DNA of 64,000 nucleotides from a virus (IMGVR_UViG_3300036670_000250:1-64000); one strand, 5' to 3'. Shown: positions 12,001-48,866, numbered from the stretch's first letter. A program made the numbers and translations. The notes: a model not told the origin generated them from the sequence alone.

Positions 12001-13806
12001 TTATACTAAATCATATATATCGTAATTAAGTTTATCTCCTCTTGTGTCTTTATCTAAAATAAATTCTATTTTTTCTTGAATTATTATGTCAGTTTGATCA
12101 AAAATATCTTCAGCAAAATCAGAAAAATCTAGAGTTTGGAAAAACTCTGAGCCATTTATGCTTGACATAATAAGGTCATCGGTACCAAGTTGGCCCGCAT
12201 ATGATCCATTTGGCAATTTACCAAAGGTTGATGCTTCGCGAATGGTTTCTTTATCTGTTATTACAATTTTATTTTGTGTAATATACTTTTTAAAATTTTG
12301 ACAAAAAATAGGTTTGTTATCTTTTTTAATTTTAAGTCCAAATTGTTTTATTTTTGCATCAACCCTATGTTTAAATTTTACAATTAACTCTTCATCAAAA
12401 TCATTTCGCTGTGGAAATATAGTTTGCAGCCTATTCACTAGCTCGCCTCCAAACATATTCCATTCAATTATAAGTTTTACGTTTTCCGGATTAAACATAT
12501 CAAATGCTGTAATGTAAACTGCCTTTGCAAATTCTTCTAAACTATGTTCGTTACTCCTAAATCTACCAACCTGTTTTAATCTAAAAAAATCAATAAAAGA
12601 ACCTGGTGATACTATTTTTTTCCAAGTGTCTTCTTCCATCAATTCTACTTTAAATATATTTATGATAGAATTATCACCGCCATTTCCTTCTGCTATATCT
12701 ATAGAAAATAACCAATAGTTAGCATCGTCCTCAATTTCATCAAAATTAAAATCAGGGTGCCACTTAAAATCATCATAATTAATATCTTCATCATCAAATT
12801 CTGGAAGTTCTTTGTTAATAAATTTAAGTTGATTGCTCTGAAGTTTTTTAAGACTGTCTGCGCCTAATAACAAAGATGACCCTGCTATAAATTGGTTTCC
12901 ATATTGACGATTAAACGCTTCATCGGATCCTAAATTAGCAACTTCACGTTTCATCCAAACATCATCTCTACCCGGTACATCCCACCAATCAACTCTAAAT
13001 GGAGTATATTCGTTACTTCCATTATCTGCAGCTGAATAAATGTCATAAAATTTATTAAAGCCATTAGGTGTACTTGTTATGATTACTTTAGAGTTTGTAG
13101 ATGCTGACACTGTAGGATAAACATTTTCATAAAAAGTATCTACAAAGTTTTGAGGAATGTGAGCAAACTCATCCATAAATAATAAATGAATAGTAAAACC
13201 AATAGCTGCTTTTTTAGTTGTGGTTTGCCCAATGATTCGACACCCATTATCAAATTTTGAATTAAATACATCCCACTTTAAAATCCCAGGTTTTAAAAAA
13301 AACGGTAAGTGTTCTAATATTGTTTTACCCTTATCAATAATTTCTCTAGTTGTTGCACCTTTATTTGAAAGTACTAACGAATTTTTGTCAAAATTAAATA
13401 AAGAATAATGTGCTATAAAAATACTGCTGCAAATTGTATTATGAGAAAGAATACCATTAGACCAATACCTGTGATTATTGCTAGCTACAGTTACATCAAA
13501 CATTGACACGGTAGAGTTATGTTTAATTATATTGGTAACCATAATAGGCCCATCTAGTGTAATTACATGATCTCCTAGATTAAGATTCTTTAAAAACACT
13601 TCTTCATACTCTCTATTAAAAAGTATATGATTATCAGCCCCTTCTAAATATAATCCATTAGACAATTCAATTCGATATACATCATACGGTTGTGTTATAT
13701 GAATATTTGAAATAGACTCCCAGCCAGTGTCAGTATCAATATAAGTATCAGTTAAATCTAGAGTAGATATGATTTTTTTGTTAATATCGTCTTGATCTAA
13801 GGTCAT
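12001..13806 (-). CDS. 17: large terminase, C-terminal half: split-intein C part (123 aa) plus TerL C-extein
   Basis: Residues 1-123 (13438-13806) are an intein C part covering most of a Hint fold, with ADNHILF and the terminal HRYWSNGILSHN; splicing would occur after that Asn, before Thr. The extein continues TICSSIF, completing the Walker A motif begun by the N-terminal gene (SRQIGK|T). Then follow Walker B (LLFMDEFAHI) and the RNase H-fold nuclease motifs FSIDIAEG, LIIEWN and a late DDLIMS. Joined exteins total about 605 aa, close to T4 gp17 (610 aa). The start at 13806 (MTLDQDD) is chosen over an in-frame ATG at 13875 because the extra 23 residues are hydrophobic and unlike the sister C parts. 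Confidence 0.9.
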   Translation of the reverse strand: MTLDQDDINKKIISTLDLTDTYIDTDTGWESISNIHITQPYDVYRIELSNGLYLEGADNHILFNREYEEVFLKNLNLGDHVITLDGPIMVTNIIKHNSTVSMFDVTVASNNHRYWSNGILSHNTICSSIFIAHYSLFNFDKNSLVLSNKGATTREIIDKGKTILEHLPFFLKPGILKWDVFNSKFDNGCRIIGQTTTKKAAIGFTIHLLFMDEFAHIPQNFVDTFYENVYPTVSASTNSKVIITSTPNGFNKFYDIYSAADNGSNEYTPFRVDWWDVPGRDDVWMKREVANLGSDEAFNRQYGNQFIAGSSLLLGADSLKKLQSNQLKFINKELPEFDDEDINYDDFKWHPDFNFDEIEDDANYWLFSIDIAEGNGGDNSIINIFKVELMEEDTWKKIVSPGSFIDFFRLKQVGRFRSNEHSLEEFAKAVYITAFDMFNPENVKLIIEWNMFGGELVNRLQTIFPQRNDFDEELIVKFKHRVDAKIKQFGLKIKKDNKPIFCQNFKKYITQNKIVITDKETIREASTFGKLPNGSYAGQLGTDDLIMSSINGSEFFQTLDFSDFAEDIFDQTDIIIQEKIEFILDKDTRGDKLNYDIYDLV

Positions 13807-13884
13807 GTGCTTATATTCAATATGTTCTATAAATTGAATTAAAAAAAGTATTATTAGTTTTAGTATATTAATCATGCATTAATT

Positions 13885-14964
13885 TTAGTTATTTAGAAAA
13901 TGAATACATTTTTCTATAGTTTGTTTACGATTATCATTAAATTCTTTCTCCCATACAACAAGGACTTCGTAGTCATACTTTACAGGCAAAGTTATTTTTA
14001 TGTTATCATATTCCCAAATTTCTTTTGCACTTAATCCTTTGTTTTTATGAAAGTACCCCGATTCATAACATAATGGGTTACAATGCCAATAATCACCATT
14101 GAATTCAATGATCTTCTTTTCGTATGTAAAGTCATAACTATATGCTCTATCTTTTTCAACATCATGTATCCATTTTTCTTTCTTTGGAACTTCGATCTTT
14201 AAATGTTTACACAGTTCAGTTATAATAGAGCTTGCAAATTTACTTGATGGGCTTCTACTGTCGCCATAGTTCGCAAAGTTCTCCTGCAGTGATATCTTCC
14301 ACTTAGTTTGTCTATCATTGAATTTTTCAGTGCCTTCAACTTCACCGTACTTCTTGATACATTTTTTTAAGGTGAATGTAGACTGTCTTTCTTTGAGCTT
14401 TATTTTAGCTTCTTCTTTAGAAAACCCTTTATTTAACCACCACTCAACCTGAGTAGATGTAATTCTTGCAGCCCAATCAATATTGTTTATAAAGTTGTCA
14501 CGGTCTTCTTTTGATTTGTAATTTTTGAACTTTAGCGAAAATGGGCTACGTGAACTGCGTACTTCATCAGTTGTACATGATTTGTGATTTGGGTTTTTTG
14601 CACCCTTAATTGCATCACTAGCCATCTTACGGTATTTCGGTTTTTTCATGTGGTTTTCCTGTCCACATTTAGTCGTACTGTTTTTGTCTTTTTCACAACA
14701 TAGACATGAGTTTGGGAAATCTTTTAAATATTCTTTTGTAGTTCTCCCTGGGTGCATTGCCCTCATCCATGCACCATATAATCTTGGGGTCACATAACCA
14801 TTCCATTTATCAATAATATAATCTATACCTTCTTCACCTTCTCTGATTATTCTTTCTTGATTCTTATCAAACCATGCGTTCTTTTTGCACTCTGCACTAC
14901 AGAAGGATGATCTATTACTCGGGGCTTTATATTTTATTTTACAAACTGTACAATTCTTTTCCAT
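13885..14964 (-). CDS. Vsr-like (EDxHD-type) homing endonuclease between the terminase halves
   Basis: This 359-aa protein starts with a zinc-finger-like CTVC...CSAEC pair and a second Cys-rich part (CLCCEKDKN). The middle carries a helix-turn-helix-like repeat EWWLNKGFSKEEAKIKLKER followed by a QSTFTLKKCIKKYG segment. The C-terminus is a Vsr-like nuclease: YSYDFTYEKKIIEFNGDYWH, then an EIWEYDNIK helix and VLVVWEKEF. This matches the family described with fractured split-intein phage genes and with I-Bth0305I. It presumably cuts an uninterrupted or differently interrupted terL and drives spread of the split locus. It has its own late-type promoter element and looks intact. Confidence 0.85.
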   Translation of the reverse strand: MEKNCTVCKIKYKAPSNRSSFCSAECKKNAWFDKNQERIIREGEEGIDYIIDKWNGYVTPRLYGAWMRAMHPGRTTKEYLKDFPNSCLCCEKDKNSTTKCGQENHMKKPKYRKMASDAIKGAKNPNHKSCTTDEVRSSRSPFSLKFKNYKSKEDRDNFINNIDWAARITSTQVEWWLNKGFSKEEAKIKLKERQSTFTLKKCIKKYGEVEGTEKFNDRQTKWKISLQENFANYGDSRSPSSKFASSIITELCKHLKIEVPKKEKWIHDVEKDRAYSYDFTYEKKIIEFNGDYWHCNPLCYESGYFHKNKGLSAKEIWEYDNIKITLPVKYDYEVLVVWEKEFNDNRKQTIEKCIHFLNN

Positions 14965-14990: not shown

Positions 14991-15554
14991 TTAGTCTTGC
15001 TTTTTGTCAAATGAATCTAAAGTTTCGTAAACTCGCCACAAAAAAAATTTAGCTTTTTCTATAAGTGTAAGGTTTCTTTGTAATTTCAAAGTTTCAAAAT
15101 ATAGGCGGCCTAATGTAGTTTTAATACATATGTTGTCCCTATATACGATGATTTCAGTTGAATGAAAAAGACACTTACCAATTTGTCTGCTAGCTAAACA
15201 AATATTAAATCTTTCTTTTTGAAATTGCCTTAGCATGTTTTCTTGGTATGGCCTTAACTTAATTGTCTTCAAACCAAAATCAGTCATAACTGTACAATAG
15301 TTGTTTGCAAAATAAACAATATCAGTTGCACATTTTCTAATTTCCTTTATTTCATGTGTTGTGTAATTAAAAACTAGATTTCCTTTTTTTAAATTAGGAT
15401 TACCCTCGTAAAATGGTGTTGTCTTTGGTTTATAGCCATCTTCTATAGCCAACAAAAGCTTTTCAGCTTTTTCGCTTGACCATGAAAATTGTTCTTCCGT
15501 TTTACTTATTTCTAATTCAAAACCGGAGCTTTCTGTTTTTTGTCTTTGTGCCAT
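14991..15554 (-). CDS. 17: large terminase, N-terminal half: TerL N-extein plus split-intein N part
   Basis: Residues 1-127 are the start of a T4-type large terminase: the RPYQENMLRQFQ adenine-binding region and the start of Walker A, ASRQIGK. At Cys128 (codon 15171-15173) an intein N part begins (CLFHSTEIIVYRDN) and runs 60 residues to the stop. The N part is far shorter than the 90-120 aa of usual split inteins, like the AceL-TerL type known from an Antarctic lake metagenome. TerL is the ATPase/nuclease motor of DNA packaging, so a functional enzyme requires trans-splicing with the 12001-13806 product. Confidence 0.9.
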   Translation of the reverse strand: MAQRQKTESSGFELEISKTEEQFSWSSEKAEKLLLAIEDGYKPKTTPFYEGNPNLKKGNLVFNYTTHEIKEIRKCATDIVYFANNYCTVMTDFGLKTIKLRPYQENMLRQFQKERFNICLASRQIGKCLFHSTEIIVYRDNICIKTTLGRLYFETLKLQRNLTLIEKAKFFLWRVYETLDSFDKKQD

Positions 15555-34934: not shown

Positions 34935-34946
34935 GTTTATATATTA
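34935..34946 (-). promoter_or_regulatory. late-promoter-like element for gp15-like gene
   Basis: The minus strand reads TAATATATAAAC 16-27 bp before the ATG, inside the end of the gp46 C gene. Confidence 0.5.
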
Positions 34947-36860
34947 GACTACATCACTAATAGTAAATTCGCTAAAGCCTGCATCTTTTGTAAGCTCTAG
35001 TTTTTTATCAAACATTTCACTTGGCAATACTGTGTGGTTTATTACAAATGTGTTTAAACCGATATCGCTGATAGTTTCATGAAGTATTTTAATTATATGG
35101 TAAACACCTGATGAATCAACTGAACTAAAAATTTCATCTAAAAATAAAATGTTTAAGCTAGGAAATCTAAGTTTTATCATTTTAATTAAAGCCATGATAA
35201 TAACAAAATCAACCTTTTTCTTTTCTCCAGTGCTTAATGTTTTTGGGTTAATTTCTTGACCTAAATGATGTATAGCACAATTAAATTTATCATCAAATTT
35301 AATACTAAACGGTATACCTATTTCTTTAACCATTATAAGTATGTTATTATTAAATGTTGGTAAAATAGATCTTACTGCTAAATGCTTAATACCGTCTTCA
35401 CCCATTAAAGACTCTAATAGTGATAAATAGTAATCTTCACCTTCAACGTTAAGTTTTCCTGTTCCTTTATTTTCTCGCTTTTTATTAAACTCATCAATTA
35501 ATTCTTTAAAGTGAGATGATGATTCATTATCATTTTCTGATATTTTAATTAGCTCACTCTTTAATGAAGTCATCTGAGATTCAAGTTGTCCTACTTTTAC
35601 ATAAATTTGTTTTCCTTGTTCTCTTAACTCACTTAATGTTGTATCAATATTAATAACTTCAGCCTTAACTTTATTAAAATCAGTAGTAAACGTATTTAAA
35701 GTATTTTCTTTTTCTTTTTTAATATGCTTATGAAAATCAGAATCAAGAGGAGCTGTACACGTTGGGCATGTATTATTGTTATAAAGATCTAAATCATTTT
35801 TTACATTATTGATTTGTGCTGATATTTCTGATTCTTGTTTTGCTTTAATTCTATATGTTTGATCATTATCATCAATTCTTTTCTTTGTTTTATCATTTGC
35901 ATCTTGTAACTTTTTTCTAGCGTCATTTAATTTTACTAATTTAGTTTTCAACTCAATGATTTGAGTTACACCCTTTTGTTTTGACGCTTCTTCATATTCT
36001 GCTATTTTAGATAACACTGATGAAATAGATTCATCTAAAGATCGTATTTCATCATCAAGAGTACGAATTTCATCAATAACAATTCTTCTTTTATTTTTAA
36101 CTAAATCTCTCATTTGATTAATTACAGAAAAGCCAAAAATTCTATCTATAATTTGTTTTTTGTCAAAAGGAGACATTGTGACAAAAGACTTAAACTCATT
36201 AACTGATAATATGATTACATTTTTAAAAACATGATAAGGAATTTCGTAAATTTCAGTTTCTAAAAACTCTTGTAGATTAGATTTACCAGCAACATCATAT
36301 TCGGAACCATTAATTAAAACTTTAAAAACTGCAGGTCCAATACCTCTTTCAATTTCTATAATGTTACCTCTGCTTTCCAAGAGTATCTTACCCCAAAGAT
36401 TACTATTTACCCTATTCGGTAAATCTTTTAAGCTTACACCTTCAACTCTGCCATAACACATAAAAGTTATAACTTTTGCTAATGTGCTATTATGAGATAC
36501 TATTCCATTTGCATAAAATTCCTTTACTTCATTTACCTCAATGTCATATAAATCTGCTCTTTCATCTAATAAAGTATTAGATATAATGTATGTAATGCCA
36601 TCCTTTGTTTCAATTAAATCGCCTGGTTCAAAGTCTTTTGCCTTTTTCCATTCTTTATAAAAAAATAAGTGATCTGGCGATGCTGTTATGTTTACGCCAG
36701 ATTTTAATACTAGTTTATGCTGACTACTATCTTTAGCCGTTATATCTATACCATTAATAGTTCTTAAACCAAATCTAGTATCAGTTTTGAATTTTTTAGA
36801 ATTTATAGAATTATTAATTTTATTAAACTTGTATATGTCTTCTAATGTACACTTAATCAT
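34944..36860 (-). CDS. 46: recombination ATPase gp46, C-terminal piece: split-intein C part plus C-extein
   Basis: Residues 1-124 (36489-36860) are an intein C part with SPDHLFFY and ending EFYANGIVSHN; Ser follows. The extein starts STLAKVITFM, completing the P-loop of the N piece (GGNGAGK|S). It then carries long coiled coils around a zinc hook (CPTC at about residue 370), the LSTGEKKKVDF signature and Walker B LNILFLDEIFSS. Joined exteins total about 555 aa (T4 gp46 560 aa). With gp47 it resects DNA ends for recombination-dependent replication, so trans-splicing is needed. Confidence 0.9.
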   Translation of the reverse strand: MIKCTLEDIYKFNKINNSINSKKFKTDTRFGLRTINGIDITAKDSSQHKLVLKSGVNITASPDHLFFYKEWKKAKDFEPGDLIETKDGITYIISNTLLDERADLYDIEVNEVKEFYANGIVSHNSTLAKVITFMCYGRVEGVSLKDLPNRVNSNLWGKILLESRGNIIEIERGIGPAVFKVLINGSEYDVAGKSNLQEFLETEIYEIPYHVFKNVIILSVNEFKSFVTMSPFDKKQIIDRIFGFSVINQMRDLVKNKRRIVIDEIRTLDDEIRSLDESISSVLSKIAEYEEASKQKGVTQIIELKTKLVKLNDARKKLQDANDKTKKRIDDNDQTYRIKAKQESEISAQINNVKNDLDLYNNNTCPTCTAPLDSDFHKHIKKEKENTLNTFTTDFNKVKAEVINIDTTLSELREQGKQIYVKVGQLESQMTSLKSELIKISENDNESSSHFKELIDEFNKKRENKGTGKLNVEGEDYYLSLLESLMGEDGIKHLAVRSILPTFNNNILIMVKEIGIPFSIKFDDKFNCAIHHLGQEINPKTLSTGEKKKVDFVIIMALIKMIKLRFPSLNILFLDEIFSSVDSSGVYHIIKILHETISDIGLNTFVINHTVLPSEMFDKKLELTKDAGFSEFTISDVV

Positions 36861-36994: not shown

Positions 36995-37204
36995 TTATTT
37001 GTTTTTGATAAATTCGATAAAGTCATTTCTTAATTCTTCATCTTCTATTTCAACATATATTTCTGTTTCTTTTGCAAGACATTTGCCAGCGCCATTTCCA
37101 CCGAGAACTAAATATAAATCGCTATTTTCTTTATCAAATTCTATTACCTGCACCTTATTTCCGTAACTGGCAAAATTTTTAAATTCAAGTTTATTTATTC
37201 TCAT
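36995..37204 (-). CDS. 46: recombination ATPase gp46, N-terminal piece plus 28-aa split-intein N part
   Basis: This 69-aa protein has 41 extein residues ending in the P-loop YLVLGGNGAGK, typical of Rad50/SbcC/gp46 N-termini. From Cys42 (codon 37079-37081) 28 residues of intein N part follow (CLAKETEIYVEIEDEE...). It is the shortest N part in the window, similar in size to the 25-residue AceL-TerL N part. The stop codon of the gp47 gene lies 3 bp upstream of the ATG, so gp47 and gp46 N are probably co-translated. Confidence 0.9.
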   Translation of the reverse strand: MRINKLEFKNFASYGNKVQVIEFDKENSDLYLVLGGNGAGKCLAKETEIYVEIEDEELRNDFIEFIKNK

Positions 37205-38734: not shown

Positions 38735-39838
38735 TTAAGTTATATCGTCAGTCTCAGTTAATCTCATAAAGTTATAATCAATATTAAATCTACATCGATT
38801 ACCCTTACCTTCACCATCTCTAATTTTTAATACCTTTAGCCAATATTCTCGATTTGCATGCATCATACTATCTTGAATTAATGCATACATAACATCTGCT
38901 GTATGTGCTAATCCTGCAGATTCAGCTATGTTTTCCATTTTGATTTCAGTTGAGTCCCATGCACCACGATTAAGCTGAGTAGCAGAAATTACTAGAATAT
39001 CTTTCTTTACTGCTAGCGCCCTAAGATCTTCTGCTATTTGTTTAATTTTCATGTAAGTATTTTCTGTATTCGGATTTCTATAATTTGATAATATGTTAAT
39101 ATAATCTACAATTAAAACATTAACTTTATGATCTTGTGATTCCTCAAGTTCTTTTAAATATGATTCAATATCTAAAATAGTAGCTTGTGATGTTGGGAAT
39201 TCTTTAACAAAAAGCTTGCCGGGTGGTAATAATCCACGAGATATCCTTTCTAATTTTCTTTTAACAAAATCACGATTTACTGATTTTTCATCATATTCAG
39301 ACATGTTAATATTAAGTAAGTTAGCACCTATTCTTTTAACTACCTTTTGAGCAGACATTTCAGCAGTGATGAATACTACGTTATGACCCATGCGAACAAA
39401 ATTAGCTGCATCATTAGCTAACCAAATAGAGTTATGAGATAATATACTATTTGTAAAATATCTATGATTAGGGTGATCTACTTCTAAATCATACATATTT
39501 TCTAAAACATCATACTTAATTACAGACGACACTAATTCTGCTCCATCTGCTGTAATAATTCTATCAGGTCTAGAATCTTTATTAAGATCTTTTACAAAAA
39601 TTTGATCATATGTATCATCAAACAAAATATGATCATCTGCACATTTTAAAGATTTACCTGATGACGTAGTTACTTCCCAAACTTCGTATGGTATTGTTTT
39701 ACCAATATTTTTAATCGAAGAAAAACCAGTATCAGTTTCAATTTCCCAATCGGATACAATAAAGGTTTCTTCAAATTTACGATCAACCGAATTAGATAAA
39801 TCTGCTGCTAGTTTATATTCAAGAAAATCTACTTCCAT
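38735..39838 (-). CDS. 41: replicative helicase gp41, C-terminal piece: split-intein C part plus C-extein
   Basis: Started at the ATG at 39838 (MEVDFLEYKL), residues 1-136 (39431-39838) are an intein C part with ADDHILF and the end HRYFTNSILSHN. It is clearly paralogous to the TerL C part (SIxNI, PYxVW/Y, HRYxxN). The extein starts SIWLAND, completing Walker A (GEQNVGK|S), followed by Walker B VLIVDYINIL, a SATQLNRGAW segment and the DnaB-family C-terminus. An in-frame ATG at 39919 lies inside a terminator hairpin and is unlikely. Joined exteins total about 427 aa (T4 gp41 475 aa). Confidence 0.9.
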   Translation of the reverse strand: MEVDFLEYKLAADLSNSVDRKFEETFIVSDWEIETDTGFSSIKNIGKTIPYEVWEVTTSSGKSLKCADDHILFDDTYDQIFVKDLNKDSRPDRIITADGAELVSSVIKYDVLENMYDLEVDHPNHRYFTNSILSHNSIWLANDAANFVRMGHNVVFITAEMSAQKVVKRIGANLLNINMSEYDEKSVNRDFVKRKLERISRGLLPPGKLFVKEFPTSQATILDIESYLKELEESQDHKVNVLIVDYINILSNYRNPNTENTYMKIKQIAEDLRALAVKKDILVISATQLNRGAWDSTEIKMENIAESAGLAHTADVMYALIQDSMMHANREYWLKVLKIRDGEGKGNRCRFNIDYNFMRLTETDDIT

Positions 39839-39904
39839 AGTTTTACAATTTAGGTTGTTATAAAAATTATATAATAAATTATAGTGTTTGTTTATATTTT
39901 TACA

Positions 39905-39934
39905 ATAAAAAAGCAACACACTTAGTATGTTGCC
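39905..39934 (-). terminator. terminator hairpin between the two gp41 pieces
   Basis: On the minus strand GCAACATAC and GTGTGTTGC form a 9-bp stem (one G-T pair) with a 3-nt loop followed by six T. It would end the gp41 N transcript before the gp41 C gene, implying separate transcription of the two pieces. Confidence 0.75.
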
Positions 39935-39984: not shown

Positions 39985-40677
39985 TTAAAAAGAACTTTTG
40001 ATTAACTTAAAAAAATCACCAACTTTTACGTTTTGTATAAGACCAGTTTTCTTATTACGAATGTTGATTAGTGTATCATAAGAAGTGCATTTACCTACAT
40101 TCTGTTCTCCGGCGTAAATTATTAAAGATTTAGTGTCGTAGCCACCACCTGATACGTTATCAACAAAAGTCCATCCTGTTTCTATTTTTTTACTTTTTCT
40201 TTGGATATGATGTTCAGGATTAAAGAAATCTAAACCTACATCAGAGTCAAAGTTAATAGAACCTTCAGTTGAAATCATCCCAATTGCTCGAGTAACAATA
40301 TCTTCAACATTATCAGGAGATACTTCTTGTGTTTTTACATATTCAATTGTTTTAATTAACTGTTTATCAAAATGTTTCCACTTAATCCAAGATTCACCAG
40401 TTCTTTTTAACCAATCTTGATCATATTCATTTATGTTAATACTATAAACAGCAGAAACAATATCATTTGAAATTTCATTTGAATCATCTTTTACTAAAGC
40501 TTTCATTTGATCTTGTGAAGGTGAATCCCCAAACTTTAAATAAAAGTTTTTAGCTAATTTAGATACATGATCTAAATCACGGTTTACAAAAAAGCCAGGG
40601 CCTACACTTTTTAAATACTGTGGTTTTTTGAGAAAATAATTAAAAAATATTTTTTCGTGATCAATACCTGAATACAT
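39985..40677 (-). CDS. 41: replicative helicase gp41, N-terminal piece plus split-intein N part
   Basis: This 230-aa protein contains the gp41/DnaB N-terminal domain and linker, then the start of the RecA-like core (KKIETGWTFVDNVSGGGY, IIYAGEQNVGK). At Cys197 (codon 40087-40089) an intein N part of 34 residues begins (CTSYDTLINIRNKKTG). The hexameric helicase unwinds DNA at the replication fork; its P-loop is incomplete until splicing with the 38735-39838 product. gp41 is a known host of split inteins in environmental T4-like phages. Confidence 0.9.
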   Translation of the reverse strand: MYSGIDHEKIFFNYFLKKPQYLKSVGPGFFVNRDLDHVSKLAKNFYLKFGDSPSQDQMKALVKDDSNEISNDIVSAVYSININEYDQDWLKRTGESWIKWKHFDKQLIKTIEYVKTQEVSPDNVEDIVTRAIGMISTEGSINFDSDVGLDFFNPEHHIQRKSKKIETGWTFVDNVSGGGYDTKSLIIYAGEQNVGKCTSYDTLINIRNKKTGLIQNVKVGDFFKLIKSSF

Positions 40678-40715: not shown

Positions 40716-41015
40716 TTACTCATACGGATTAATTATAACTTCATATGTAGTATAGGCAGACGTTGAGTTAATTTCAGAAAGAATTCCATCAGCCATTAAT
40801 TTTTGTATAATAGCTGATGTCTTTTCTTCAGTTAATTCGTATTTTCTTTGGAGTGAAACATTAGTAAATTTAATGTCTTTTGCTACTTTTACACAATAAT
40901 CTCTAATAAGTTCAAAAATAACATCTTGAAAATCAGGATAGCCTGGTAAAGAAGCATGATTACCTAATACGTATTTAACTTTAAGTTTTGATGTATTAAT
41001 CGTCTTCTTCAACAT
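40716..41015 (-). CDS. small winged-helix protein
   Basis: This 99-aa protein starts at the ATG at 41015 or 41027, overlapping the end of uvsX piece 3. The segment VSLQRKYELTEEKTSAIIQKLMADGI resembles an FtsK-gamma-like winged helix, with recognition and wing (TSAYTTYEVI). It is probably DNA-binding. Linkage to UvsX and gp41 suggests a role in replication or recombination. No precise family is assigned. The quoted segment is described at residues about 58-83. Confidence 0.55.
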   Translation of the reverse strand: MLKKTINTSKLKVKYVLGNHASLPGYPDFQDVIFELIRDYCVKVAKDIKFTNVSLQRKYELTEEKTSAIIQKLMADGILSEINSTSAYTTYEVIINPYE

Positions 41016-41658
41016 CACCAACTTCATTAAGAATTTCAGAAAGATTAGCTAAATCTAAATCATCAGTACCATACTTAAATTTAGAATTTACAATAGGCTC
41101 TATTTTATCAAGTATTTCTTGTGTAATTACTCTAGGTGTAAATAATTCATTAAGATCAACAGTATCATTAAGATGAGCTACACACATTTTACGGGCAGTT
41201 GGGGAAGGTTGAAAATAAACCGTGATTAATTTATTTTCTTTCAGATAATCATGTCTTTTGCATTCTAGTTTGGCTGCATCTGTTAATTTAGCATACATAC
41301 TTTCTGTGATAAATTTACCACGTTCAATACCGCATACGTCCCAGTTAATATATTCCTCCAACCCAATATATGCATTCATACCCTTATTAAAAGAAATATG
41401 GAACTTAATAGGTAAAGGCTGGGCAAATCTATTTTTATTAGGTTTTGCTGTTACAATAATTCCAGTTTGTTCAATACCATCTTTAAGTTTTGCTTTACCT
41501 AAAAAAAGAATGATTGATGCTGCATATTCAGGACCAGTATTATGATTTATAACACCATTGGATGTTATATAATGTTGCACATCAGCAACAGTTAAATCAT
41601 GTACTTTAGTAGATTTTAATTCTGTTACCTTCTTTATTTTTAATTTCTTTAATTGCAT
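40996..41658 (-). CDS. uvsX: UvsX recombinase piece 3: split-intein C part plus C-terminal extein
   Basis: Residues 1-40 (41539-41658) are the C part of the second UvsX split intein, ending HYITSNGVINHN. The extein (180 aa) begins TGPEYAASIILFLGK, which follows loop L2 in UvsX, and ends in an acidic tail (LNEVGDVEEDD) as in T4 UvsX. With pieces 1 and 2 it gives a 401-residue recombinase (T4 UvsX 391 aa). An ancient endonuclease relic lies just upstream. Confidence 0.9.
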   Translation of the reverse strand: MQLKKLKIKKVTELKSTKVHDLTVADVQHYITSNGVINHNTGPEYAASIILFLGKAKLKDGIEQTGIIVTAKPNKNRFAQPLPIKFHISFNKGMNAYIGLEEYINWDVCGIERGKFITESMYAKLTDAAKLECKRHDYLKENKLITVYFQPSPTARKMCVAHLNDTVDLNELFTPRVITQEILDKIEPIVNSKFKYGTDDLDLANLSEILNEVGDVEEDD

Positions 41659-41670
41659 TGTTTATTTTTT

Positions 41671-41847
41671 TTATGATTGTATTTTTTTAATAGTGTCAAT
41701 AGCTTCAGTTTTAGTAAAGCCTTTATTTGACCAATAATTTATAGTTAATCTTGATCGTCCAGCCTGTAGCAGCAATGCCTTTGATCTACATTCTTCATAC
41801 GACCATCCCATAGAATACCAATATTCTTTAGATAATTTAGAAGCACC
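41671..41847 (-). pseudogene. decayed fragment of the Vsr-like homing endonuclease DNA-binding region
   Basis: One minus frame reads SKEYWYSMGWSYEECRSKAL and then INYWSNKGFTKTEAIDTIKK IQS before a stop. Both parts match the EWWLNKGFSKEEAKIKLKER repeat of the intact terL endonuclease. It is bounded by stops, has no start codon and lacks the nuclease domain, so it is a relic in the gap of the second UvsX split intein. Confidence 0.75.
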
Positions 41848-41859
41848 TTACCACCACTC

Positions 41860-42312
41860 TTAATTTGTATAAACCGAAACTAAATCGTCTTCAATTAAAT
41901 CTTTAGCATACGCCCAGTTGGAATCATCCAATGGATCGTCATTAGCTTCACCTACAAAAAACCTATGATCTTCAGAGCATTCTAATATACTCCCATCTTC
42001 AAATTCTACTTTATATGTAGGTTTATTAAACACCCAAACTTGCTCAATTTCCTTTTCACCACTTAGTGTTTTAACATAGTCACCTTCTTTAATGCTTTCT
42101 ATTTGTTTATATGAACCATCTGCCATTAATACTAACGATCCTGGTACCAAACAGCCACCACCACCTACTTGCTTAGAAAAAAGATCCTGTGTATTATGAG
42201 ATATCGTACCATCTTCCAAAATATAATGATGACTATCTTTAATCGTCAAATCATAAGTAGATATACGCTCATCTAAAATCTCTGTCTTTCTTTTTATTTT
42301 TATTTCTTTCAT
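41860..42312 (-). CDS. uvsX: UvsX piece 2: intein-1 C part, 13-aa extein, intein-2 N part
   Basis: This 150-aa protein is almost entirely intein. Residues 1-40 (42193-42312) are a C part ending HHYILEDGTISHN. Residues 41-53 are the whole extein, TQDLFSKQVGGGG. Residue Cys54 to 150 (41863-42153) is an N part with DGSYKQIESIKEGDYV and CSEDHRFFV. It must splice at both ends, with piece 1 and piece 3. The extein aligns with T4 UvsX loop L2, between HTY(E) and TGP, which contacts single-stranded DNA. A protein of this make-up has no use unless both trans-splicing reactions occur. Confidence 0.92.
   Translation of the reverse strand: MKEIKIKRKTEILDERISTYDLTIKDSHHYILEDGTISHNTQDLFSKQVGGGGCLVPGSLVLMADGSYKQIESIKEGDYVKTLSGEKEIEQVWVFNKPTYKVEFEDGSILECSEDHRFFVGEANDDPLDDSNWAYAKDLIEDDLVSVYTN
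42154..42192 (-). other. uvsX: 39-bp mini-extein of uvsX
   Basis: Thirteen codons (TQDLFSKQVGGGG) lie between an intein terminus (HN) and an intein start (Cys). T4 UvsX has a closely similar stretch between NHTYE and TGP. It is the entire recombinase content of the middle gene. Confidence 0.92.
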
Positions 42313-42367
42313 ATTTCTTTAATTAATTTTTTGTGTTTATCAAAAATCAAGACCTTTATATTAAGAT

Positions 42368-42535
42368 TCATTGATTTGCTTTAAGTAGCAAAGAACCATC
42401 AGCAATTGCCTTATTATAAGTATAATTTGATGTTACTTCATACAGTGTATTAGTTTCACTTACATAAAAATATGGATAATATCTATTGGTTTTTGTTAAT
42501 ATCGGAAAACCAATAGATATTACAAGTAATATCAT
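42368..42535 (-). pseudogene. decayed nuclease fragment between uvsX pieces 1 and 2
   Basis: A 55-codon frame directly follows the uvsX piece-1 stop in the same frame. It contains RYYPYFYVSETNTLYEVTSN then YTYNKAIADGS. This resembles the RYYPDFYx...xEVKSxYTY core of a PD-(D/E)xK nuclease, with the catalytic Asp (PDF) now Tyr and the Lys (EVKS) now Thr. It is too short and lacks catalytic residues, so I read it as a relic of a homing-type nuclease distinct from the Vsr-like family. Confidence 0.5.
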
Positions 42536-42541
42536 AATTTT

Positions 42542-43447
42542 TTAGTATTGTAATATTATGTCTTCTTCATTTAAGTCTTCTGCAGTTTTCCAAGAAGACT
42601 CGGATGACCAATCAGGTTTAATTAAAAACCGATGTTCTGGCGTACATCTAAAAATTGTACCATTTTCAAGTTCAAATTCTAATACATAAGATTTTTTAAA
42701 TTCAGTTAATAATTCTACTTCTTTACTGCCATCTAACGTTTTAACATAATCACCTACTATAATATCTTTAATATTTTTTATAGAATCATCATGCATAATA
42801 ACATTAGCATCGCCCCAAACACATTGGTAAGTATGGTTTGTGAAAATAAAAGGAATTTTACAAATACCTAATTTTGTCATAAGAATCCTAAATGTAGATT
42901 TAAGCAATTTTGCACGAGTCATGTCTGCTTTATCAGAACCGCTTTTTGCATCATCTACTTCTTTTTGCGTGGCAAGATTACCAGCAGAATCTAAACATAA
43001 CATAATTCTAGGAAGCTTTGCTCCCTTTTTCTTTTGCTCAATAAGAGTATCAGTTAGAGCAGTAACGGAGCTTCTAAATTCTTGAACGGTATTACATGGC
43101 TCATATCTAAATTTAGTAGGGTCTATTCCAAATTTTTCAACTAAGTCTTTATCTACTGCATTTTCAGAATCGTAAAAAACAATACTATAACCTATATCTT
43201 GTGCCTGTTTAATTGCATTCATCAATAAAAACGTCTTGCCGGTACCACTCGGCCCAGCAAGTGCAACTGCCCTATTATTAGGGAAACCGCCAAATAAAGA
43301 TCCAGTTAAGCACGCATTAAGATTATAATTACCAGTTGGAATGTAATGATCTATTTCAGAAACTGTTGATTTGTCCATCGTATCACCATACGTTGAATGT
43401 TTGGCCATTTCTTTATTTAAGTCTGTAAACGAAAATTCTTTGTTCAT
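42542..43447 (-). CDS. uvsX: UvsX piece 1: N-terminal extein plus canonical split-intein N part
   Basis: Residues 1-208 are the RecA/UvsX core: Walker A GPSGTGKT (65-72), VFYDSENAVDK, Walker B-like LPRIMLCLDSAGNL and the final PFIFTNHTYQ. At Cys209 (42821-42823) a 93-residue intein N part begins, with GDYVKTLDGSKEVE and CTPEHRFLI (block B type). UvsX forms the presynaptic filament for strand exchange and replication restart; the break is just before loop L2. Pairs with the C part in piece 2. Confidence 0.92.
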   Translation of the reverse strand: MNKEFSFTDLNKEMAKHSTYGDTMDKSTVSEIDHYIPTGNYNLNACLTGSLFGGFPNNRAVALAGPSGTGKTFLLMNAIKQAQDIGYSIVFYDSENAVDKDLVEKFGIDPTKFRYEPCNTVQEFRSSVTALTDTLIEQKKKGAKLPRIMLCLDSAGNLATQKEVDDAKSGSDKADMTRAKLLKSTFRILMTKLGICKIPFIFTNHTYQCVWGDANVIMHDDSIKNIKDIIVGDYVKTLDGSKEVELLTEFKKSYVLEFELENGTIFRCTPEHRFLIKPDWSSESSWKTAEDLNEEDIILQY

Positions 43448-47122: not shown

Positions 47123-48070
47123 TTAAAAAAGGCTTGTTGTATAAATAAGGTTTCGATTAAAACCTTTAAAACCCATTGCTGTAATTACTCGATTGATTGG
47201 ATCTAATATAGTTTTTTCAAATTGTGTATCGTAATCAACAGAGGGCGCAAATTCATACGGATAATCACCCGGGGTATATGCAAAAACATCACATGATTTA
47301 TCAACAGAAAAATACATTTTTAACTTTTCACCATTTCCTAATGGTTGATATTTACTCTTAAGACCTGAGTTATATAACATATAATTGTGATAGCCTGCTG
47401 CTCTTACCCCAATTGGGCATTTAGATCCAATTTCAAATTCAGTATAATCATTTATGATATACTTTTGATAATTATTAACTTTTTTTGAAAAACTAATATG
47501 GTCAGTATTTGCTAATTTAAACTGCCTTTTAATTTCTTTTAATTGACTAGCAAATTCCTTCATATTTAGTTCTTTTACTGAAAACAAATATGTTAGTAAT
47601 TCCTTAAGTTTTTCTCTTGCAAATATTGGTGTAGATGATTGAATAATTTCAAACCCCTTTGAGCTAATTTTAGTTAAATCATCATAATGTATATCAGGAT
47701 CTTTCCATACAATATTTTGCATATACTTTTTCTTAGCTAGCCATATTGCATTTTTAGCAATGCTTTCTAATTCAAAACTTAAAAAGTTTTCCGCATTATT
47801 ATCATTAGCATATTTTTGTAGAATTTTTTCTATATAAGAACCTAATCTGGTTTTGTATAAATTTAAAATAAAATCTTTTTCATTACCAGCCCAATCTGTT
47901 TTTTTAATAATTTCATCAAACTTTACATAGATTGAATTATGAACTAAGATATCGTTTGCTATAAATGTATGTGTTTCATCGCCTACTTCTAAATCATATA
48001 CATACTCATCATTAAAATCACCAATACATTCAATAGAGTCTATCTCTTCAAATTCAAAGTTTGAATTCAT
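47123..48070 (-). CDS. 43: DNA polymerase gp43, C-terminal piece: split-intein C part plus palm/thumb
   Basis: Residues 1-45 (47936-48070) are an intein C part ending THTFIANDILVHN. The extein begins SIYVKFDE, completing motif C (YIDTD|SIYV), then LAKKKYMQN (the KKRY-type motif) and thumb features through KGFNRNLIYTTSLF, whose end resembles the clamp-binding tail of T4 gp43 (SLFDMF). It must be joined to the 48180-48866 product to restore the catalytic Asp pair with its following Ser. Confidence 0.9.
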   Translation of the reverse strand: MNSNFEFEEIDSIECIGDFNDEYVYDLEVGDETHTFIANDILVHNSIYVKFDEIIKKTDWAGNEKDFILNLYKTRLGSYIEKILQKYANDNNAENFLSFELESIAKNAIWLAKKKYMQNIVWKDPDIHYDDLTKISSKGFEIIQSSTPIFAREKLKELLTYLFSVKELNMKEFASQLKEIKRQFKLANTDHISFSKKVNNYQKYIINDYTEFEIGSKCPIGVRAAGYHNYMLYNSGLKSKYQPLGNGEKLKMYFSVDKSCDVFAYTPGDYPYEFAPSVDYDTQFEKTILDPINRVITAMGFKGFNRNLIYTTSLF

Positions 48071-48180
48071 ATTAATATTTTTTTGTTTTTCATTATACTG
48101 TTAATGTGGTTAATTGTTTCAACTGGATTTTCTTTATATTCAGATTCCTATATTATAATTACGTAGACACAGGATTTTAT
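48067..48180 (-). pseudogene. decayed C-terminus of the Vsr-like homing endonuclease
   Basis: One minus frame in the gap reads YVIII, an amber stop, then ESEYKENPVETINHINSI. It aligns without gaps to the end of the intact terL endonuclease (VLVVWEKEFNDNRKQTIEK), with the conserved Trp replaced by TAG. Only the C-terminal tail survives, so it is a relic in the gap of the gp43 split intein. Confidence 0.75.
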
Positions 48181-48866
48181 CAATATACAGTTAAAACTTT
48201 ATCGGTTATAAGAATCTCAGAAGGTTTAACTTCTAATTTAGTGTTATTTCTAAATACAATTAAAGAGTGATCATTTGTTACAATGACTTCTTTACCAGAC
48301 TTAAGTTTTAATCTCCATTTCTTTTTAGAAACTTTATGACGTATTACTCTTTCAATGGGTGCATAATATAAACCATTATCTTCAGACCAATTCATAGTCT
48401 TTAATTCAGTACGTACGCTTTCATGGCCGGATAGAGTATCACCAGCATTACCTAACTTTAGGTCTACTGAACGTTGATATAACTCTTCTATTGTTAGTTT
48501 GCCGGCATTAGTGTTAATAATGGTGCTACCGACAACAGAGTCAGTATCTATATAGATGCCCACTGGCTTATCAATGCGACCAGTTACAGTAATTCCCATT
48601 TGTTGATGAGTGTCTAAATCTTTATGCCAATAATATTTAAAATATTTATTAATTAACTCTTCAGTGTAAAGAATTGCATCCTTGCCTTGAAGAGTTATAG
48701 TTTCTGCAATATCAACATTAAAAAAGTAAAAATAAGGATTGCCAAAAGCTCCATAAATACTGTTTAGCATTAACTTTACTGCTTGTTCTAAATTAAAATA
48801 ATCAGAAGCTTCTTCTTTAATTGTAATTAATTCTTCTTGTAATTTTTCTCGTTCAGCTACTGTCAT
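48180..48866 (-). CDS. 43: DNA polymerase gp43, middle piece plus split-intein N part
   Basis: Residues 1-109 are the fingers/palm region: motif B KLMLNSIYGAFGN (31-43), ITLQGKDAILYTEE and the first half of motif C, GIYIDTD. The intein starts at Ser110 (SVVGSTIINTNAG; codon 48537-48539), and its 119-residue N part contains KWRLKLKSGKEVIVTNDHSL. Ser rather than Cys at position 1 is usual for inteins in this polymerase motif. The piece starts with its own ATG (MTVAEREKLQEE) and is not linked by any intein to the N-terminal gene at 63647. Confidence 0.9.
   Translation of the reverse strand: MTVAEREKLQEELITIKEEASDYFNLEQAVKLMLNSIYGAFGNPYFYFFNVDIAETITLQGKDAILYTEELINKYFKYYWHKDLDTHQQMGITVTGRIDKPVGIYIDTDSVVGSTIINTNAGKLTIEELYQRSVDLKLGNAGDTLSGHESVRTELKTMNWSEDNGLYYAPIERVIRHKVSKKKWRLKLKSGKEVIVTNDHSLIVFRNNTKLEVKPSEILITDKVLTVY

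What the first reader, a model, noticed from the sequence alone, without database searches (positions are those of the whole stretch)
40996..43447. UvsX recombinase split into three genes by two split inteins, with a 13-residue middle extein equal to DNA-binding loop L2
Piece 1 ends NHTYQ then intein Cys; piece 2 is C-intein (40 aa) + TQDLFSKQVGGGG + N-intein (97 aa); piece 3 is C-intein (40 aa) + TGPEYAAS. Joined exteins give a 401-aa UvsX. Single split inteins in fractured phage genes are known; a natural three-polypeptide, two-reaction assembly whose middle partner contributes only loop L2 is, to my knowledge, unusual. UvsX pieces can form stable but DNA-binding-defective intermediates, so splicing could control recombinase activation.
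Basis: partly seen in the sequence, partly recalled or inferred. Interest (0 to 1): 0.93.

Follow-up and report, generated by a model that had tools for sequence, protein, structure and literature searches.

The report
Phage recombinase assembled from three pieces
This phage encodes its DNA-recombination enzyme UvsX in three separate genes that two self-splicing protein elements (split inteins) should stitch back together, the middle gene supplying only 13 amino acids of the DNA-binding loop; broken genes with one such split are known, but double breaks in one gene, and a middle piece this small, appear not to have been described.

Summary
Three minus-strand ORFs (42542-43447, 41860-42312, 40996-41658) encode UvsX pieces plus intact halves of two canonical class-1-type split inteins. 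The joined exteins give a 401-aa UvsX that aligns end to end, at up to 85% identity, with unbroken uvsX genes. The 13-residue middle extein aligns with RecA K198-G212 (loop L2). Site-a and site-b inteins belong to separate clades. Site b is a known kind of break: one split, with a homing endonuclease gene between the halves. Site a is rare. In the window both endonucleases survive only as remnants, while the intein halves stay open. Three-polypeptide UvsX is not unique: L098, L124/L137 and L147 are broken at the P-loop and site a, with a middle extein of about 140-150 aa. Only the window joins sites a and b. Its middle protein therefore has the order C-intein/13-mer/N-intein, as in engineered SICLOPPS peptide-cyclising constructs, and its AlphaFold model matches SICLOPPS crystal structures best. 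Cyclisation would need cross-pairing of the two inteins, untested. Most likely mechanism: two orthogonal trans-splicing reactions restore UvsX; regulation by splicing is unproven. New variant of a known kind (doubly fractured gene).

The parts
42824..43447 (-). UvsX N-extein E1 (208 aa, Walker A GPSGTGKT, ends NHTYQ)
   Evidence: translation; RecA/UvsX families; intact relatives
42545..42823 (-). N-intein of site a (93 aa, starts C, block-B TPEH); stop 42542-42544
   Evidence: clade with L098/L124/L147 site-a inteins
42368..42535 (-). 55-aa ORF in gap a: remnant of a DUF7487-type PD-(D/E)XK nuclease C-terminus, putative catalytic D and K lost (YYPD->YYPY, EVK->EVT)
   Evidence: DUF7487 weak hit; 45% over 42 aa to L117, a 401-aa DUF7487 protein
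42477..42522 (.). perfect 17-bp inverted repeat, 12-nt loop, just behind the piece-1 stop
   Evidence: RNA fold z = -3.9
42193..42312 (-). C-intein of site a (40 aa, ends SHN)
   Evidence: 88% over 24 aa to L082, 62% to L098
42154..42192 (-). middle extein E2 TQDLFSKQVGGGG (13 aa, loop L2)
   Evidence: alignment to RecA
41863..42153 (-). N-intein of site b (97 aa, starts C, SEDH at block B); stop 41860-41862
   Evidence: 72% to L086 and L094
41674..41847 (-). gap b: 58-residue remnant of the N-terminal YW-repeat region of the site-b homing endonuclease
   Evidence: phmmer 9.8e-19 to L087, 1.6e-13 to L094
41609..41686 (-). gap b: remnant of the endonuclease C-terminal tail (NAIKEIKNKEGNRIKIY) in another frame, overlapping the start of piece 3
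   Evidence: against L094/L086
41539..41658 (-). C-intein of site b (40 aa, ends NHN)
   Evidence: 90% to L086 and L094
40999..41538 (-). UvsX C-extein E3 (180 aa, starts TGPEYAAS); stop 40996-40998

Best explanation
The uvsX gene was fractured twice by split inteins at two sites that flank loop L2. Three polypeptides are translated separately. Cognate halves associate (N-a with C-a, N-b with C-b), and each pair carries out ordinary protein trans-splicing: Cys1 acyl shift, transfer to the +1 Thr, Asn cyclisation. This joins E1-E2 and E2-E3 into a 401-residue UvsX. Each break once carried its own homing endonuclease gene, of a different family; both are now decayed, and the intein halves are kept because UvsX can be made no other way. 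Shown: the sequence parts, the exact junctions, the site-specific intein lineages, the relatives with single splits and with other double splits, the endonuclease remnants. Inferred: expression, cognate pairing, splicing, function of the product.
For: Exact in-frame junctions against intact uvsX at up to 85% identity. Intein halves with their splicing motifs present and open frames. Both fused inteins match the gp41-1 split intein, PDB 6QAZ, an active split intein in PMC7090010. Site a and site b inteins form separate clades, 98% of bootstrap trees. Site b: single splits with a full endonuclease ORF between the halves (L086, L092-L095), a cis form (L091), and T4-like phages such as Yersinia TG1 with a GIY-YIG gene between. 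Site a: L082, L098, L124, L147. Other three-polypeptide UvsX: L098, L124/L137, L147. Site-b halves under purifying selection: pN/pS 0.23-0.33 for N-b, 0.12 for C-b. Both endonucleases decayed while the intein frames stay open. No other RecA-family gene in the record.
Against: No expression, proteomic or splicing data. Selection on the site-a N-intein cannot be told from neutrality (pN/pS 0.77, bootstrap 0.51-1.19, one pair). The record is a 69.9-kb fragment, so an intact recombinase elsewhere is possible. Non-cognate pairing of the two canonically split inteins is not excluded.
Confidence: 0.85

Rival explanations
1. Piece 2 (C-intein a, 13-mer, N-intein b) folds on itself like an engineered SICLOPPS construct and releases a head-to-tail cyclic 13-residue L2 peptide, or sits in that closed form as a brake on assembly; cross-pairing of piece 1 with piece 3 could also give an L2-less UvsX.
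For: Domain order is that of SICLOPPS. AlphaFold model of piece 2 alone: pLDDT 83, pTM 0.78, extein residues 43-51 the only stretch below 50. Its four best PDB matches are the SICLOPPS inteins 5ol7, 5ol5, 5ol1, 5ol6. Both inteins are split at the canonical site, so halves are physically complementary.
Against: The two halves come from different intein lineages (44% N, 45% C identity), and phage-type split inteins are often orthogonal (PMC7090010). AlphaFold would pair homologous halves whether or not they react. UvsX still has to be made from piece 2.
Confidence: 0.12
2. The three polypeptides assemble non-covalently into a working UvsX without splicing, as split NrdA of phage Aeh1 does.
For: Genes split by homing endonucleases can give working multi-chain enzymes (PMC2988022).
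Against: Here all intein splicing motifs are kept, and a 13-residue L2 flanked by two intein halves is unlikely to dock functionally (inference).
Confidence: 0.05
3. Assembly chimera: a strain split only at site a and a strain split only at site b were joined in the contig through the shared 39-nt extein.
For: Each single-split form exists elsewhere (L082; L086, L094); no second contig with the same a+b piece was found.
Against: Read length normally exceeds 39 nt plus flanks (general knowledge); both endonucleases have decayed remnants in the same contig; three-piece genes exist in other contigs.
Confidence: 0.05
4. uvsX is dead here and the phage relies on the host RecA or another recombinase.
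For: Both endonucleases are decayed; site-a N-intein selection is weak; incomplete record.
Against: All three ORFs are open; exteins and site-b inteins are conserved (E1 dN/dS 0.06-0.12).
Confidence: 0.04

Closest known systems
Fractured genes with split inteins (Dassa et al. 2009, NAR 37:2560; not held in the library, abstract known from memory)
   Same: Essential phage replication gene broken by a split intein, with a free-standing endonuclease gene or its remnant between the halves.
   Different: One gene broken twice; both endonucleases decayed; middle extein of 13 aa.
UvsX split once at site b in T4-like phages (Yersinia TG1, Vibrio VmeM-32; PHROG 8337/18112)
   Same: Same insertion site GGG|TG, same intein type, endonuclease between the halves.
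   Different: Two polypeptides, one splicing reaction.
L098, L124/L137, L147 (IMG/VR): UvsX in three polypeptides
   Same: Two split inteins, three genes, site a shared.
   Different: The other break is at the P-loop with an atypically split intein (N half about 25-30 aa); middle extein of about 140-150 aa; endonucleases partly intact.
Engineered tandem trans-splicing (Shi and Muir 2005, cited in PMC11766414; multi-part assembly in PMC7090010)
   Same: Three or more parts joined by orthogonal split inteins.
   Different: Laboratory designs, not natural genes.
SICLOPPS (PDB 5OL1, 5OL5-5OL7)
   Same: C-intein - short extein - N-intein in one chain; predicted fold matches.
   Different: SICLOPPS uses the two halves of one intein; here they belong to two inteins, and cyclisation is not shown.

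Membership tests
UvsX / RecA recombinase | RecA core with Walker A and full-length alignment to UvsX | tested here: met
UvsX / RecA recombinase | DNA-strand exchange activity | not testable with these tools
   needs protein
Class 1 split inteins | N-terminal Cys, block-B [TS]xxH, His-Asn at the C-terminus, +1 Cys/Ser/Thr, at both sites | tested here: met
   site a: C, TPEH, HN, +1 T; site b: C, SEDH, HN, +1 T; homology to gp41-1 intein
Class 1 split inteins | Halves on separate polypeptides, canonical split position | tested here: met
   93/40 and 97/40 aa
Class 1 split inteins | Trans-splicing activity and cognate specificity | not testable with these tools
   needs co-expression
Fractured gene organisation | Enzyme gene broken in two by a split intein | tested here: met
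   met twice
Fractured gene organisation | Endonuclease gene between the halves | tested here: inconclusive
   only decayed remnants in the window; full-length ORFs at site b in L086, L092-L095 and between all pieces in L124
SICLOPPS-like cyclising intein | C-intein, short extein starting with C/S/T, N-intein in one chain | tested here: met
   fold match
SICLOPPS-like cyclising intein | The two halves are of the same intein | tested here: not met
   site-a and site-b clades are separate
SICLOPPS-like cyclising intein | Cyclic product formed | not testable with these tools
   mass spectrometry needed

The most novel reading that the evidence does not exclude
Piece 2 is a natural SICLOPPS: because both inteins are split at the canonical site, its C-intein (site a) and N-intein (site b) pair within the chain, so that a fraction of it is latched or releases a cyclic 13-residue L2 peptide, and the balance between self-pairing and cognate pairing sets how much active UvsX is made.
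Probability: 0.1. Interest if true: 0.92.

Novelty: new variant of a known kind. Interest (0 to 1): 0.73.

Why it matters
Broken genes mended by one split intein are known; an enzyme that nature builds from three chains by two splicing reactions is, as far as could be checked, undescribed (no match in the held library; the founding 2009 paper is not held). This case and the P-loop/site-a cases show that double fracturing recurs in phage UvsX. The window form supplies a natural pair of inteins that must work side by side around a 13-residue loop: a test of intein orthogonality under natural selection, a possible source of tools for inserting short peptides into proteins, and a recombinase whose DNA-binding loop arrives as a separate gene. 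Whether splicing gates recombinase activity, as ssDNA does for the RadA intein, becomes directly testable.

Tried and rejected
First junction pattern was mis-specified at the last codon and found nothing; a corrected one found only L082 and L098 in viral contigs and three hits in GTDB genomes in contigs of unrelated bacteria, not inspected and taken as chance. N-junction pattern TNHTYQ|C: only L098; the other three hits are unrelated. AlphaFold of an intact UvsX (L002) was poor, pLDDT 60, L2 region below 50, so no structural claim rests on it. No Rfam match near threshold; promoter-like sites not above shuffles and no terminator-like site. The tblastn hits of piece 2 to T4-like phages over the C-intein part are extein aligned to intein, not site-a inteins. 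Tree of UvsX exteins: the window's place is unresolved, but split and intact alleles are intermixed (L094_b with L019 intact, L092_b with L057 intact), as expected for mobile inserts.

Full report
OBSERVATION. The window is bases 1-64000 of a 69,897-base IMG/VR virus record. On the minus strand three ORFs follow one another: 42542-43447 (301 aa), 41860-42312 (150 aa), 40996-41658 (220 aa). Cut at the intein borders they give E1 208 aa, N-a 93, C-a 40, E2 TQDLFSKQVGGGG, N-b 97, C-b 40, E3 180; E1+E2+E3 = 401 aa.

COMPARISON WITH INTACT GENES. The joined 401-aa protein was used to scan IMG/VR: the best relatives are uninterrupted uvsX genes, up to 85% identical over residues 1-400. In 26 aligned intact proteins the junction residues are among the most conserved (NHTYQTQD and GGGTGP). 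Against RecA structures E2 aligns with K198-G212 (numbering recalled); the published span of loop L2, 195-209, is from general knowledge. The same stretch of RecA (residues 193-212) was reported in 1996 as a peptide that pairs DNA by itself; this is recalled, not checked.

THE INTEINS. Both pairs have Cys1, a block-B [TS]xxH, and His-Asn before a +1 Thr. Fused N-a/C-a and N-b/C-b both match the gp41-1 intein, PDB 6QAZ. C-b is 90% and N-b 72% identical to L086 and L094; C-a is 88% identical to L082 (24 aa) and 62% to L098, N-a 52% to L098. A tree of N+C sequences separates site-a from site-b inteins, in 98% of bootstrap trees (L083_b, from a distant UvsX, lies on the far side of the drawing root from the other b inteins). 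The two inteins in the window are therefore separate lineages, not a duplication in place.

RELATIVES BY STATE. Site b only, split, with a 330-355-aa endonuclease-like ORF between the halves: L086, L092, L093, L094, L095; L087 with an internally deleted one; L091 with the same intein unbroken in one 550-aa ORF. Yersinia phage TG1 and Vibrio phage VmeM-32 have the same site with GIY-YIG/SegG-like genes between, and PHROG families 8337 and 18112 look like such half genes. Site a only: L082, at a contig edge, N half not seen. A neighbouring site (NHVYDVVG|SYVP): L084, L085. P-loop in cis plus b split: L083. Three polypeptides, P-loop + a: L098, with a 95-aa first piece ending AGPSG + about 27-aa N-intein; L124 and L137 (same type; L137 ends inside the middle piece), with full endonuclease ORFs (379 aa, and 345 aa in L124); L147, second endonuclease cut to 97 aa. 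So UvsX has at least four intein sites, two of them hugging L2, and double fracturing has happened in more than one combination. The a+b combination was seen only in the window (pattern scan; protein scan; records very close to the window may have been left out by the tool).

THE GAPS. Gap b holds two out-of-frame remnants of the site-b endonuclease: 41674-41847 (phmmer 1.6e-13 to L094, 9.8e-19 to L087) and the C-terminal tail 41609-41686; the middle, with the conserved EYDGLYWH core, is gone. That this ORF family is an endonuclease is inferred from its place and from that motif, which recalls the Vsr-like family of Dassa et al.; no library profile named it. Gap a holds a 55-aa ORF whose end matches a 401-aa DUF7487 protein (DUF7487 9e-60) of an uncultured phage, 45% over 42 aa; the PD-(D/E)XK-like residues read Y instead of D and T instead of K. 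Just behind the piece-1 stop lies a perfect 17-bp inverted repeat (RNA z -3.9), function unknown. Two endonucleases of different families thus came and decayed. The intein halves did not: site-b halves show pN/pS 0.12-0.33, comparable with the exteins; for site a only one distant pair is available and N-a (0.77, 0.51-1.19) cannot be distinguished from neutral. The record has no other RecA-family gene. The simplest reading is that both inteins are kept because UvsX depends on them.

MECHANISM. Most likely the three chains are translated from A-rich starts, cognate halves capture each other, and two trans-splicing reactions give UvsX; the order is free. Expression, pairing and splicing are inferred. 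The anatomy raises one specific problem that the other three-piece genes do not have. In L098, L124 and L147 the P-loop intein is split atypically and site a canonically, and the middle extein is about 140-150 aa. In the window both inteins are split at the canonical place, so piece 2 is C half - 13 residues - N half, the order of the engineered SICLOPPS cyclising constructs. AlphaFold folds piece 2 alone with confidence (pLDDT 83, pTM 0.78; low only in the extein), and Foldseek's four best PDB hits are the SICLOPPS inteins 5OL7, 5OL5, 5OL1, 5OL6. This shows that the topology is feasible, not that it reacts: AlphaFold pairs homologous halves regardless of cognate specificity, and phage split inteins are commonly orthogonal (PMC7090010). 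Either selection keeps the two orthogonal, or self-pairing is a side reaction or a control.

WHAT IS KNOWN. The kind (fractured gene with split intein and endonuclease) is known from Dassa et al. 2009 (recalled; not held) and from later work such as AceL NrdHF (PMC7891396). The held library gave no paper with both 'split intein' and 'UvsX', and no natural three-part case turned up in searches; most subscription papers are not held. Tandem trans-splicing is an engineered method (Shi and Muir 2005, cited in PMC11766414). Substrate-controlled splicing has a precedent in the RadA recombinase intein (PMC5790916, PMC10663303).

VERDICT. Real; a doubly fractured uvsX, new variant of a known kind, with an extreme middle piece. 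Interest 0.73: a specialist would be surprised by the recurrence of three-chain UvsX and by the natural SICLOPPS order, but splicing itself is expected to be ordinary.

Noticed in passing
window 39985-40677 and 38735-39919: gp41/DnaB helicase is split in its P-loop (GEQNVGK|SIWLAND) by an atypically split intein with a very short N half; same N-half arrangement in L094 and L091.
   Followed up: partly
window 36995-37204 and 34944-36860: gp46/SbcC is split in its P-loop (GGNGAGK|STLAK): a 69-aa first piece (41-aa extein + 28-aa N-intein) and a large C-intein, with only about 130 bases between.
   Followed up: partly
window 48180-48866 and 47123-48070: DNA polymerase B is split at YIDTD|SIYVKFDE by a split intein that seems to begin with Ser.
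   Followed up: partly
window 14991-15554, 13885-14964, 12001-13875: Terminase large subunit is fractured after RQIGK, with a putative endonuclease (phrog_22677-like, as in L098) between the halves; with uvsX, gp41, polB and gp46 this makes six split inteins in five genes.
   Followed up: partly
L091 5017-6666: The site-b intein occurs here unbroken in one 550-aa UvsX ORF, 78% identical in its N part to the split intein of L092: a possible missing link between cis and split forms.
   Followed up: partly
window 42477-42522: Perfect 17-bp inverted repeat behind the piece-1 stop; no close second copy in the window.
   Followed up: partly
L083 557-1921 and 1940-2554: UvsX with an unbroken intein in the P-loop and a split intein at site b in the same gene.
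   Followed up: no
window 40716-41027: A roughly 100-aa winged-helix-like gene follows uvsX and overlaps its end; it is kept next to uvsX and gp41 in most relatives read.
   Followed up: no
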